Assembly (NCBI RefSeq): GCF_000152725.1
Contig: NZ_CH724131.1
Location: 1,953,739 to 2,017,738, forward strand
Source of the DNA: Pseudooceanicola batsensis HTCC2597
GTDB taxonomy: Bacteria > Pseudomonadota > Alphaproteobacteria > Rhodobacterales > Rhodobacteraceae
Direction: 5' to 3'
Length of the DNA stretch: 64,000 nucleotides
In this document: piece by piece, positions 39,133 to 44,255 of the stretch
How positions within the stretch are numbered: position 1 is the stretch's first letter
How the letters are laid out: each line of letters begins with the position of its first letter
The notes under the pieces: generated by a model
What the model was told of the DNA's origin: nothing
The model's database searches: none
Seen by the model: only the letters and a program-made list of their open reading frames with translations
Translations under genes and position numbers: made by a program

Positions 39133-39162
39133 GTGATCACATCGGGAAAAAGTGTGATCACA
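39133..39162. promoter_or_regulatory. Tandem GTGATCAC pair upstream of sdhC
   Basis: Two copies of the palindrome GTGATCAC lie at 39133-39140 and 39154-39161, starts exactly 21 bp apart; the distal copy is the extended TGTGATCACA. The proximal edge is 116 bp from the sdhC ATG. The same pair with the same spacing lies upstream of sucC, so a shared TCA-cycle regulator is inferred. Confidence 0.75.
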
Positions 39163-39237
39163 CGCCGCCCGCCTGACGGGAGCTGCGCCGATACCCGACA
39201 GATTCTCTTGGAAAAGCGCGCGGCCCGGCGGCCCCCG

Positions 39238-40269
39238 TCACACCGGTACCAGCGCCCAGTAGTCGAGATCGAGCAGCACCTGCGGCAGGTACTTTCCATC
39301 CTCGCCCCTGAGTTCCCCGACCGAGGCGTCGTTCACCGCCACCAGCCGCAGCCGGAGCGCGCCGACACCGGGCGCACCGGTCTCGGCCTTGTCCAGCACC
39401 TCGGACCACGCCTTGACCGTCTGCCCGGCGAAACAGGGGTTGGCATGGGCGCCGCCGTTCAGGCCCACAACCATCTGCGCATTGGCCAGCCCGTTGAAGG
39501 ACAGCGCCCGCGCGAGCGAGATCACGTGCCCGCCATAGATCAGTCGCTGACCGTCGGGCCGGAAGGTCGCGTCGAAATGCACCTTGGCCGTGTTCTGCCA
39601 CAGCCGGGTCGCCATCATGTGCTCGGCCTCTTCGATGGTGACGCCGTCGACATGGCCGATCACCTCGCCCACCTCGTAGTCGCCGAAGCGATGCGGCTCG
39701 CCCGCCAGGGTGTAGTCGTATCGCGAGAAATCCAGCCCGTCGGGCACCACCAGGTCTTCGGGCGCGACGGCCTTCGCCAGCTCGGGGATCACCGTCTCGG
39801 GCGCCGGCGCCTCGGTGTCGTTCTTGCGCACCATCACCCAGCGGATGTATTCCAGCACCGTCTCGTCCCGCTGGTTCACTCCGCGGGTCCTGAGGTAGAC
39901 CACCCCCGACGTGCCGTTTGAATTCTGCTTGAGCCCCAGCACCTCGGAGGAGGCCCGGAGCGTGTCGCCCGCATGCACGGGCTTCAACCACCGCCCCTCG
40001 GCATAGCCCAGGTTGGCGACCGCGTTCAGCGAGATGTCGGGCACCGACTTGCCCAGCACCAGATGAAAGGTGATCAGATCGTCGAGCGGCGATGCCGGCA
40101 GACCGCAGCCGCGCGCAAACTCGTCCGAGGAATAGAGCGCGTGCCGCATCGGATAGAGCGCCTGGTACAGCGCCCGCTCTCCGCCCGACACGGTGCGCGG
40201 CACGGCGTGGTCGATCACCTGCCCGACCTCGAAATCCTCGAAGAAACGCCCCGGATTGGTCTTGGTCAT
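39238..40269 (-). CDS. mch: Mesaconyl-CoA hydratase (beta-methylmalyl-CoA dehydratase)
   Basis: This 343-residue double hotdog-fold (MaoC-like) enzyme hydrates mesaconyl-CoA to beta-methylmalyl-CoA in the ethylmalonyl-CoA pathway. It starts 'MTKTNPGRFFEDFEVGQVID' and has 'LGYAEGRWLKPVHAGDTL' in the first repeat. The second repeat has 'HFDATFRPDGQRLIYGGHVI', with the His and Asp expected of the hydratase site. The start overlaps the DUF1737 stop by one base (TGATG). Length matches known Mch proteins. It lies in one operon with mcl2. Confidence 0.92.
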   Translation of the reverse strand: MTKTNPGRFFEDFEVGQVIDHAVPRTVSGGERALYQALYPMRHALYSSDEFARGCGLPASPLDDLITFHLVLGKSVPDISLNAVANLGYAEGRWLKPVHAGDTLRASSEVLGLKQNSNGTSGVVYLRTRGVNQRDETVLEYIRWVMVRKNDTEAPAPETVIPELAKAVAPEDLVVPDGLDFSRYDYTLAGEPHRFGDYEVGEVIGHVDGVTIEEAEHMMATRLWQNTAKVHFDATFRPDGQRLIYGGHVISLARALSFNGLANAQMVVGLNGGAHANPCFAGQTVKAWSEVLDKAETGAPGVGALRLRLVAVNDASVGELRGEDGKYLPQVLLDLDYWALVPV

Positions 40270-40472
40270 CACAGATCTCCCAGCTTGATCTCGGGCGCGT
40301 AGGCCCCCTCGACCTCTTTCACCACGGCCTGGCCGCAGCGCATCACCCCCGTGGTCGCATCGTGCGCATAGGTCGGATCGCCATAGAGCGACCACCCCTT
40401 GTCGAGCGCCGCGGTGACCTTGTGGCAAAAGGCCGAAGTGTCGTCGGCCGTGAGGAAACGATAGGCTTTCAT
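40269..40472 (-). CDS. DUF1737 family small protein
   Basis: This 67-residue protein begins 'MKAYRFLTADDTSAFCHKVT' and contains 'ALDKGWSLYGDPTY' and 'MRCGQAVVKE', the DUF1737 pattern. Its function is unknown. It is translationally coupled to mch (TGATG) and 13 bp after nnrU, which places it firmly in the mcl2-nnrU-mch operon. Confidence 0.87.
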   Translation of the reverse strand: MKAYRFLTADDTSAFCHKVTAALDKGWSLYGDPTYAHDATTGVMRCGQAVVKEVEGAYAPEIKLGDL

Positions 40473-40485
40473 GTGCAGTCCTGAT

Positions 40486-41031
40486 TTATCCGAAGGTCGG
40501 GTATCCGAGCCATGTGTGTATCCAGCCGATCACCAGCAGCAACAGGACAGAGATGGCGAAGAACATCCCGTCCTTGGCGATCGAGCCCTTCGCGGGCGGG
40601 GACCAGTCCGGGTCCGACCGGTTGATGACGATCATCTCGACGACGGCCCAGAGACCCAGCCCGCCGAAGAGGACGAACGAGGGGACATCGCCGTTCACCA
40701 GCAGGTGCGCCAGCGTCCAGAGCAGGAAGCCGGTCAGCATGGGGTGCCGCATCCGGTAGAACAGCGCGCCCTTCTTGGGTCCGGGACTGGTCAGGTAGAG
40801 CGCGGCCACCATCATCAGGTTGTTGATACCCACGGTCGCCGGATGGCGCCCCCAGAAGAACGCCCCCTCGGCGGCGCGGTAGCCGAAGATCATCAGCACG
40901 ATCGAGACGACGAGCGCCAGCGCCACCGCCCCCTTGCCCGCAGTGCCCATCCGGGCGCGGGGGCCGGGTGCGACGCGTTTGAAAAGATGGGCCGCCCACC
41001 AGAGCAGCACGCCGAGAACGAGAAGGAGCAT
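40486..41031 (-). CDS. NnrU family membrane protein
   Basis: This 181-residue protein has five or six helices and 'GTAGKGAVALALVVSIVLMIFGYR', 'HPATVGINNLMMVAALYL' and 'MRHPMLTGFLLWTLAHLLVNGD', the NnrU/isoprenylcysteine methyltransferase-like pattern. NnrU was named from denitrification clusters, but no nitrogen-oxide genes are near. In this operon it lies between mcl2 and DUF1737-mch, so its role here is unclear. Confidence 0.88.
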   Translation of the reverse strand: MLLLVLGVLLWWAAHLFKRVAPGPRARMGTAGKGAVALALVVSIVLMIFGYRAAEGAFFWGRHPATVGINNLMMVAALYLTSPGPKKGALFYRMRHPMLTGFLLWTLAHLLVNGDVPSFVLFGGLGLWAVVEMIVINRSDPDWSPPAKGSIAKDGMFFAISVLLLLVIGWIHTWLGYPTFG

Positions 41032-41074
41032 CAGTCACCTGTCTTGAGCATGGAGTCGCCCCACGTTGCCGGGT

Positions 41075-42729: not shown

Positions 42730-43692
42730 ATGGCACGACCCAAGATCGCCCTGATCGGCGCTGGTCAGATCGGCGGCACGCTCGCACACCTCGCGGCACT
42801 GAAAGAACTGGGCGACGTCGTCCTCTTCGACATCGCCGAAGGCACGCCCGAGGGCAAGGCCCTCGACATCGCGGAATCCGGCCCGTCCGAAGGCTTCGAC
42901 GCGCATCTCAAGGGCACGCAGGATTATGCCGACATCGCGGGCGCCGACGTCTGCATCGTCACCGCCGGTGTCCCGCGCAAGCCGGGCATGTCCCGCGACG
43001 ACCTGCTGGGCATCAACCTGAAGGTCATGAAAGCCGTGGGCGAGGGCATCAAGACCAACGCCCCCGACGCCTTCGTCATCTGCATCACCAACCCGCTCGA
43101 CGCGATGGTCTGGGCGCTGCAGAAGTTCTCCGGCCTCCCGGCCGAAAAGGTCTGCGGCATGGCCGGCGTGCTCGACAGCGCCCGCTTCCGCCATTTCCTC
43201 AGCCTCGAATTCGGCGTGTCCATGAAGGACGTCACCGCCTTCGTCCTCGGCGGACACGGCGACACGATGGTGCCCTGTGCCCGCTATTCGACCGTCGCCG
43301 GCATTCCGCTGCCCGATCTGGTCAAGATGGGCTGGACCACGCAGGAAAAGCTCGACGCGATCATCCAGCGCACCCGTGACGGCGGCGCCGAGATCGTTGG
43401 CCTGCTCAAGACCGGGTCGGCCTTCTACGCACCGGCCACCTCGGCGATCGAGATGGCCGAGGCCTATCTCAAGGACCAGAAGCGCGTCCTGCCCTCTGCC
43501 GCCTATTGCTCGGGCGAACTGGGGGTCAAGGACATGTACGTGGGCGTTCCCACCGTCATCGGCGCCGGTGGGATCGAGCGGATCGTGAACATCAAGCTGA
43601 ACAAGGACGAGCAGGAGATGTTCGACAAGTCGGTCGAGGCCGTGAAGGGCCTGGTCGAAGCCTGCAAGGGCATCGACGAGTCGCTGGCCTAA
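42730..43692 (+). CDS. mdh: Malate dehydrogenase
   Basis: This 320-residue NAD-dependent enzyme of the LDH-like MDH type interconverts malate and oxaloacetate. '[15 protein letters not shown]' (residues 5-19) binds NAD, '[16 protein letters not shown]' supplies the mobile-loop Arg residues, '[13 protein letters not shown]' follows, and 'GGHGDTMVP' holds the catalytic His. Length is standard. It is the first gene of the plus-strand TCA block; a terminator follows. Confidence 0.98.
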
Positions 43693-43716
43693 GCCGGACC
43701 ACCGCAGGACAAACCG

Positions 43717-43745
43717 AAGCCGCGGGCCGTCAGTCCCGCGGCTTT
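43717..43745. terminator. Terminator after mdh
   Basis: AAGCCGCGGG (43717-43726) pairs with CCCGCGGCTT (43735-43744) around an 8-nt loop, 25 bp after the mdh stop, followed by TC. It also faces the convergent small gene, so it may work in both directions. Confidence 0.75.
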
Positions 43746-43750
43746 CGCGT

Positions 43751-44089
43751 TCACCGGCCGTGGCCCGAGACCTCGTCCAGCAGCCGCGCGGCGATCATGG
43801 CGCCGCCCGCGATGGCCAGCGAGGTGCCGATCTTTCCGACCAGATTCTCGGGCGCCACCTGTTCCGCGCCGTCCCGCGACAGACGCACCGCCTTGCCCAT
43901 CCGGCCCGAGCGCTTGTCCCGCAGCGGTGAGGGGTTGGGCATGTCGAGCGCACTCGGACGGAACCGCGACAGCAGCGCGCCGACCGCCACCAGACCGGCG
44001 CCGAAGGCCAGCGGCATCCAGCGGTCGCGCCGCGCGACCGGAACGGGACGGCCGGACAGGTGATCGGGAAGCTTCGGAAATAGCGTCAT
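43751..44089 (-). CDS. Small membrane-associated hypothetical protein
   Basis: This 112-residue protein has a hydrophobic segment at about residues 26-43 and a second weaker one near the C-terminus ('TSLAIAGGAMIAARLL'). The middle is basic. AAGGAG lies 10 nt before the ATG at 44089. It lies opposite in direction to mdh and sucC, between them. I do not recognise a family. Confidence 0.6.
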   Translation of the reverse strand: MTLFPKLPDHLSGRPVPVARRDRWMPLAFGAGLVAVGALLSRFRPSALDMPNPSPLRDKRSGRMGKAVRLSRDGAEQVAPENLVGKIGTSLAIAGGAMIAARLLDEVSGHGR

Positions 44090-44225
44090 GGCGTGCAAAC
44101 TCCTTTCGAAAAGCAACCCGCCTGCCGGAAACCGGTTCCCCCACCCCGCCACCGGGCGGTGAATCGCACCGAAGCGCGGCATTTTCCCACTTTACCGCCG
44201 CAGAACCGGCCCTTGCGCGCACCTT

Positions 44226-44255
44226 GTGATCACGCCCCGCAATCGTGTGATCACA
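44226..44255. promoter_or_regulatory. Tandem GTGATCAC pair upstream of sucC
   Basis: GTGATCAC occurs at 44226-44233 and 44247-44254, starts 21 bp apart; the proximal copy is the extended TGTGATCACA. The proximal edge is 112 bp from the sucC ATG. The arrangement is the same as upstream of sdhC. Confidence 0.75.

What the first reader, a model, noticed from the sequence alone, without database searches (positions are those of the whole stretch)
39133..44255. Identical tandem GTGATCAC operators, 21 bp apart, upstream of both sdhC and sucC
Upstream of sdhC (39133-39140 and 39154-39161) and of sucC (44226-44233 and 44247-44254) the same 8-bp palindrome occurs twice with starts exactly 21 bp apart, two helical turns. 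The proximal edges are 116 and 112 bp from the start codons. The divergently oriented operons sdhCDAB and sucCD encode adjacent TCA steps. Identical motif, spacing and distance are very unlikely by chance. A dedicated TCA-cycle regulator is inferred. The site is not a CRP box, because the half-sites abut. AkgR- or CceR-type central-carbon regulators of alphaproteobacteria are candidates that I cannot test here.
Basis: partly seen in the sequence, partly recalled or inferred. Interest (0 to 1): 0.82.

Follow-up and report, generated by a model that had tools for sequence, protein, structure and literature searches.

The report
AkgR operators at TCA-cycle promoters
Two paired copies of a short DNA palindrome sit in front of two TCA-cycle operons and are very probably landing sites for AkgR, an activator already known from Rhodobacter; new here is how rigidly their spacing is conserved.

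Summary
GTGATCAC lies at 39133/39154 and 44226/44247; these are the genome's only two exact pairs, also with 8-18 bp between copies. The pair precedes sucC in 28 of the 31 closest loci and sdhC in 19 of 21; 49 more distant sucC loci have none. The motif is published: GTGATCAC is among binding sites of AkgR, a GntR activator of R. sphaeroides (PMC6365646). RSP_0981, by recall AkgR, was predicted to control sdh, sucCD and sucAB (PMC4344238). The likely regulator is an FCD-GntR gene outside the window. In 199 family genomes gene and pair occur together in 177, neither in 18, one alone in 4; a tree-based test gave no independent support. New detail: the pair-to--35 gap at sdhC is 57-61 bp in 136 of 150 listed matches and one helical turn off in the other 14, implying face-of-helix-dependent activation. 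The regulator's own promoter carries one site in fixed register with its -35, suggesting autorepression. Binding and activation were not tested.

The parts
39154..39161 (.). distal AkgR operator of sdhC (GTGATCAC)
   Evidence: conserved pair upstream of sdhC
39133..39140 (.). proximal AkgR operator of sdhC (GTGATCAC)
39070..39075 (-). candidate sdhC -35 box (ATGACA; GTGACW in relatives), 57 nt from the proximal operator
   Evidence: conserved gap in relatives
39048..39053 (-). candidate sdhC -10 box (TAGTAC), 16-nt spacer
   Evidence: by analogy with the -10-like block seen in many relatives
38628..39017 (-). sdhC, first gene of the sdh operon (sdhD about 38245-38619, sdhA 36424-38229, sdhB 34236-35015)
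   Evidence: ORFs; tblastn in relatives
44226..44233 (.). distal AkgR operator of sucC (GTGATCAC)
   Evidence: conserved pair
44247..44254 (.). proximal AkgR operator of sucC (GTGATCAC)
44366..45559 (+). sucC, first gene of the target cluster (sucD 47467-48351, sucA 49047-52016, sucB 52088-53650, lpd 55916-57304)
   Evidence: ORFs; tblastn in relatives; that sucAB and lpd share the transcript is not tested

Best explanation
The two palindrome pairs are operators of the GntR/FCD-family activator AkgR. Each GTGATCAC is inferred to bind one AkgR dimer; two dimers sit two helical turns apart on one DNA face. At sdhC they lie about 97 and 118 bp upstream of the inferred transcription start and are inferred to stimulate RNA polymerase from a fixed helical face. 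sucC carries the same pair at a similar distance from its start codon (its promoter was not resolved). The candidate akgR gene, 0.67 Mb away in this genome, carries one operator that overlaps its own -10 region and is inferred to repress itself. Shown here: sites, conservation, spacing, phasing, co-occurrence. From the literature on R. sphaeroides: motif, activator role and predicted targets. Inferred: dimer occupancy, direction of regulation in this organism, autorepression, effector (unknown, probably a TCA-cycle carboxylate).
For: Pair before sucC in 28 of the 31 closest loci (SucC 81-90% identical; two more have one exact and one 1-mismatch copy 21 bp apart, one has none) and in 0 of 49 more distant loci. 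Pair before sdhC in 19 of 21 Rhodobacterales hits. Literature: GTGATCAC among AkgR sites, AkgR called an activator; GntR RSP_0981 predicted to control sdh, sucCD, sucAB. Ortholog of the candidate in 29 of 30 of those genomes, one of them split in two pieces. In 199 family genomes both 177, neither 18, one alone 4. Of 385 class genomes the 5 of the same family, own included, have both; of the other 380, 0 have the ortholog and 2 have a pair. In G460, whose size and contigs fit R. sphaeroides as I recall it, the gene lies within 0.8 kb of sdhB, as the number RSP_0981 predicts. sdhC gap to -35: 136 of 150 listed at 57-61, 14 at 47-50 or 69-71; all 14 confirmed upstream of sdhC. Operator before the candidate gene in 51 of 63 relatives, 18 bp from the start of TTGAC in 41 of the 51.
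Against: No binding or expression data for this organism. The AkgR paper (mBio 02461-14) is not held. Three genomes have the pair without a detected ortholog: G432, G517 and G024, the MAG of L051; all three are draft or MAG assemblies. L047 has the ortholog but no site before the sucC that was fetched. G460 has no exact site before its own copy of the gene. Loss of gene and loss of site are not shown to be independent: on a SucC tree only 3 well-supported pairs exist; with the discordant rows left out the site followed the gene in 2.9 of 3, with them in, in 0.9 of 3; neither is significant.
Confidence: 0.86

Rival explanations
1. A different regulator, such as CceR, a CRP/FNR protein or a paralogous FCD-GntR, binds the palindromes.
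For: Many of the relatives carry FCD-GntR paralogs at 27-40% identity. CceR (RSP_1663) is predicted to regulate sdh as well. The same palindrome is proposed for a Pseudomonas GntR only 32% identical to AkgR. Three genomes have the pair without a detected ortholog.
Against: The CceR motif GTT-N6-8-AAC does not match, and CRP half-sites are separated whereas these abut. The candidate's presence agrees with the pair's in 195 of 199 genomes. Among the 33 GntR and FCD loci of this genome, overlapping ones included, only this gene has the palindrome just before its start.
Confidence: 0.09
2. The pairs repress rather than activate, for example by blocking an activator or bending DNA.
For: Sequence alone does not give the sign of regulation. 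FCD-GntR proteins are often repressors (established knowledge), and the single site before the regulator gene looks repressive.
Against: At sdhC the pair lies about 60 bp upstream of the -35 with helical phase kept, as expected for an activator. AkgR is called an activator in R. sphaeroides.
Confidence: 0.08
3. Coincidence, or a non-regulatory role of the GATC-containing palindrome.
For: Single GTGATCAC is common in this genome, 138 copies; 76 of the 88 examined have G or C on both sides.
Against: Only two exact pairs in the genome; a pair is found in 179 of 199 family genomes, the reversed control in none, in promoters whose other sequence has diverged.
Confidence: 0.01

Closest known systems
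AkgR regulon of Rhodobacter sphaeroides (GntR regulator, by recall RSP_0981; Imam et al. 2015)
   Same: Same palindrome (PMC6365646, passages), same targets sdh, sucCD and sucAB (PMC4344238, passages), and a regulator gene placed by synteny.
   Different: In this genome the candidate akgR is 0.67 Mb from the sdh/suc cluster instead of beside it, and it has an operator just before its start, which G460 lacks. Tandem register and helical phasing were not mentioned in the passages I saw; the AkgR paper itself is not held.
PS417_07240-type GntR of the Pseudomonas deoxyribonate cluster
   Same: GntR-like protein with the palindrome GTGATCAC just upstream of its own gene.
   Different: 32% identical to AkgR by that paper; proposed to control a catabolic cluster, not the TCA cycle.
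CceR (LacI family, RSP_1663)
   Same: Also predicted to control sdh and other central carbon genes in R. sphaeroides.
   Different: Different protein family and motif; the palindromes here do not fit it.
E. coli McbR (PDB 4p9f; the organism is recalled)
   Same: Best sequence match with a solved structure, E 9.1e-22.
   Different: Only a distant relative; its operator was not compared here.

Membership tests
AkgR regulon (GntR activator of TCA genes) | Regulator with GntR DNA-binding domain (here with FCD) | tested here: met
   Pfam GntR 51.4 bits and FCD 64.9 bits, both over cut-off.
AkgR regulon (GntR activator of TCA genes) | Regulator orthologous to R. sphaeroides RSP_0981 | tested here: inconclusive
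   Ortholog 74.8% identical in G460, within 0.8 kb of sdhB as the RSP numbering predicts, but G460 is unnamed, RSP_0981's own record was not available, and RSP_0981 = AkgR is recalled.
AkgR regulon (GntR activator of TCA genes) | Operator GTGATCAC | tested here: met
   Four exact copies; the motif is attributed to AkgR sites in PMC6365646.
AkgR regulon (GntR activator of TCA genes) | Targets sdh and sucCD (with sucAB) | tested here: met
   Pairs precede sdhC and sucC; published predicted targets. Whether sucAB is co-transcribed with sucCD here is not tested.
AkgR regulon (GntR activator of TCA genes) | Direct binding and activation | not testable with these tools
   Needs binding and expression assays in this organism.
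CceR regulon | Inverted repeat GTT-N6-8-AAC at the site | tested here: not met
   Neither 29-bp pair contains GTT; motif.
CRP/FNR-type box | TGTGA and TCACA half-sites separated by 6 bp (recalled) | tested here: not met
   Half-sites abut in all four copies.

The most novel reading that the evidence does not exclude
AkgR is a GntR-family activator that works from a rigid two-dimer platform far upstream (about -97 and -118 at sdhC) in a strictly helix-face-dependent way. Evolution moves the platform only in whole helical turns, while a single operator in fixed register over the -10 of akgR makes the same protein an autorepressor.
Probability: 0.6. Interest if true: 0.5.

Novelty: new member of a known kind. 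Interest (0 to 1): 0.33.

Why it matters
The motif, the regulator and the targets are in print, so the finding is mostly a confirmation that raw-sequence reading recovered a real regulon. The added value is a family-wide map: a pair is present in 179 of 199 family genomes sampled, so control of this segment of the TCA cycle by AkgR looks ancestral or at least old there. The one-turn hops in operator-promoter distance give a natural experiment on helical phasing for a GntR activator.

Tried and rejected
A CceR site or a CRP box was considered and rejected by motif; a full CceR-like pattern (GTTANCGNTAAC, recalled) was not found in the window. gltA, icd and acn were not checked gene by gene; no exact pair lies elsewhere, and of 88 single sites examined only one has both flanks; 44 sites were not listed and not examined. 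A GntR or FCD gene inside the window was looked for and not found. A -35/-10 for sucC was sought in an alignment of 40 upstream regions and not resolved. The independent-loss test was not significant and weaker once rows I had first left out were put in. A literal motif search of papers returned 397 papers, 30 listed, none recognised as relevant from the listing. One pair outside the family (G233) lies inside a coding frame and is taken as chance; the other (G177) lies beside a different GntR/FCD gene.

Papers: passages of PMC6365646 and PMC4344238 carry the argument; PMC4419725, PMC11323563 and PMC5343134 were searched for passages (for AkgR the first two gave only reference-list entries and the third none); PMC4263372 outline and abstract only; PMC7471390 search listing only. 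What is said here not to be mentioned rests on these and on searches.

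Full report
What is there. The window carries GTGATCAC at 39133 and 39154 before sdhC (minus strand) and at 44226 and 44247 before sucC (plus strand), starts 21 bp apart in each pair. Six copies lie in the window against 0.81 expected, and none of 100 shuffles reached six; two of the six are inside coding sequence. In the whole genome the exact pair with 13 bp between occurs only at these two places, and the reversed control never; with 8-18 bp allowed there are still two. 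With up to 3 mismatches there are 97 matches against 4 for the reversed control; apart from the two exact ones, those listed have 2 or 3 mismatches, and I did not place them.

Conservation. I fetched the best 80 of 587 sucC loci from named genomes. The 31 closest (L027-L057, SucC 81-90% identical) are nearly all named as Rhodobacterales; L051 is named only Proteobacteria, and L044 (Maritalea) is placed in another family by NCBI. Of the 31, 28 have two exact copies within 400 bp of sucC, 26 with starts 21 bp apart and 2 with 20; two more have one exact and one 1-mismatch copy 21 bp apart; one (L047, Roseovarius sp. 217) has none. None of the other 49 loci (L058-L106) has an exact copy; one of these, L092, is a MAG named Rhodobacteraceae with SucC only 73% identical. 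sdhC was found in 22 loci: in the 21 from the close set, 19 have the pair and 2 a single copy; the Rhizobium locus has none. In 199 family genomes of at least 90% completeness, 179 have a pair with 8-18 bp between the copies and none has the reversed control. Of the 75 pairs listed there (counted by eye), 65 have 13 bp between, 7 have 12, 2 have 10 and 1 has 16. Flanks are partly conserved: the consensus is TTT-GTGATCACA ... TGTGATCAC-AAA.

Identity. [quoted passage not shown] sphaeroides, which is 32% identical to the GntR-like PS417_07240. PMC4344238 (passages) states that the GntR regulator RSP_0981 is predicted to regulate succinyl-CoA synthetase, succinate dehydrogenase and alpha-ketoglutarate dehydrogenase. 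That RSP_0981 is AkgR, and that AkgR directly activates TCA genes, is my recall of Imam et al. 2015, which is not held.

The regulator in this genome. There are 12 FCD and 21 GntR matches in the genome. Over the loci of all of them, only the gene at C2:2667239-2667883 has GTGATCAC just before its start codon; one other FCD locus has a copy about 1.4 kb away from its FCD match. It has both Pfam domains. At E up to 1e-20 the protein has a match in 29 of 30 genomes of the close set, the best one 67-85% identical, in one genome as two pieces; G024, the MAG of L051, has none although L051 has the pair, and the genome of L035 was not held. In the 199 family genomes the ortholog (E up to 1e-50) occurs in 179: with the pair in 177, without it in 2 (G449, G551); the pair occurs without it in 2 (G432, G517); neither in 18. 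G449 keeps one exact and one 1-mismatch copy 21 bp apart; G551 yielded no sucC. Of 18 ortholog-lacking genomes whose sucC promoter I read, 16 have no exact copy (two of them a single 1-mismatch copy) and G432 and G517 have the pair. Of 385 genomes of the class, the 5 of the same family, own included, each have two pairs and the ortholog; of the other 380, none has the ortholog and 2 have one pair. One of these two lies inside a coding frame, the other beside a different GntR/FCD gene.

Limits of the co-occurrence. It is not independent of descent. On a SucC tree the ortholog needs 6 changes, and only 3 well-supported independent pairs exist; the site followed the gene in 2.9 of 3. I had left out L035, L039, L051 and G517 there. 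With all but L035 put back, the ortholog needs 9 changes, and the site followed the gene in only 0.9 of 3. Neither result is significant. G432, G517 and L051's genome are draft or MAG assemblies, so a missed gene is possible but not shown.

Link to RSP_0981. In G460 the order is lpd, sucB, sucA, sucD, sucC, mdh, other genes, sdhC, sdhA, sdhB, and then this GntR gene within 0.8 kb. That is about where a locus numbered 0981 should lie if sucC is 0967 and sdh 0974-0976. In two other relatives (L292, L293) the gene lies next to lpd instead. In the window's genome it lies 0.67 Mb away.

Regulon in this genome. Besides the window, I examined the 88 of 132 GTGATCAC sites that the listing gave. Only one has both T before and A after: the site before the GntR gene. 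Ten have at least one of the two; 76 have G or C on both sides, as coding sequence of this genome might. The flank test is not perfect: of the four window copies, two have both flanks and two have one.

How it works. In relatives the sdhC promoter has a GTGACW -35-like box, often followed by a TAT-like -10. In a first set of 23 promoters, 20 have a GTGAC box downstream of the pair: 16 with a gap of 57-60 bp, and one each at 47, 70, 78 and 80. A scan of 395 family genomes for the pair followed by GTGACW after 46-76 bp matched in 265; the window's own genome does not match because its box is ATGACA. Of the 150 matches listed, 136 have a gap of 57-61 bp and 14 have 47-50 or 69-71 bp; no other gap occurs among them. 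One of the 136 (61 bp) is a second match to a pair already counted, read in the other direction, and is probably chance. I fetched all 14 exceptions: each lies upstream of sdhC with a GTGAC box at that distance; the 136 were not each checked for sdhC. The exceptions sit about one helical turn either side of the main class (mean cosine of phase 0.88; none of 100,000 uniform draws reached it; the draws treat genomes as independent, which they are not). The window itself has ATGACA at 39075-39070 and TAGTAC at 39053-39048, gap 57. From this the operators are centred near -97 and -118 of an inferred start. This is comparative evidence that the bound protein must face RNA polymerase on one side of the helix, as an activator would. 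For sucC I could not resolve the -35/-10. Before the GntR gene the operator is present in 51 of 63 relatives, starting 18 bp after the start of a TTGAC box in 41 of the 51, so it overlaps the expected -10; I infer autorepression. The 63 may hold near-duplicates, and G460 has no exact site there.

Verdict. The finding is real and its interpretation fits, but motif, regulator and predicted targets are in print for R. sphaeroides. The tandem register, the one-turn hops and the register at the regulator gene were not mentioned in the passages I saw; whether the AkgR paper reports any of them I could not check.

Noticed in passing
L294, L298, L310, L314, L316, L385, L393, L394, L395 (sdhC promoters of relatives): A second element, GCGCCAAAANACCGC, lies between the AkgR pair and the -35 of sdhC in 9 of 44 promoters read (one promoter is counted twice), 36 bp from the -35 in 8 and 26 bp in one; a site near -60 for another regulator is possible.
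   Followed up: partly
L294-L323 (sdhC promoters of relatives): TTAGCG or CGCTAA, resembling CceR half-sites (recalled), occur in 7 of 30 operator-to-promoter spacers against a mean of 0.75 and a maximum of 4 in 500 base shuffles, hinting at joint AkgR-CceR control.
   Followed up: partly
window 35029-36405: An O-antigen-ligase-like gene (Wzy_C) lies between sdhA and sdhB on the same strand.
   Followed up: no
window 32454-34097: A FAD_binding_2 protein (547 aa) lies directly after sdhB on the same strand.
   Followed up: no
L188:992-1020: In a genome of another alphaproteobacterial family (G177) a GTGATCAC-N13-GTGATCAC pair lies between a receptor-like gene (TonB type by eye) and a different GntR/FCD gene, so the tandem operator may be general for this GntR branch.
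   Followed up: partly
L047:9501-10010: The sucC of Roseovarius sp. 217 in this locus has no palindrome upstream, and the whole locus has none, although the genome has the regulator; it may be a relocated or second copy.
   Followed up: no
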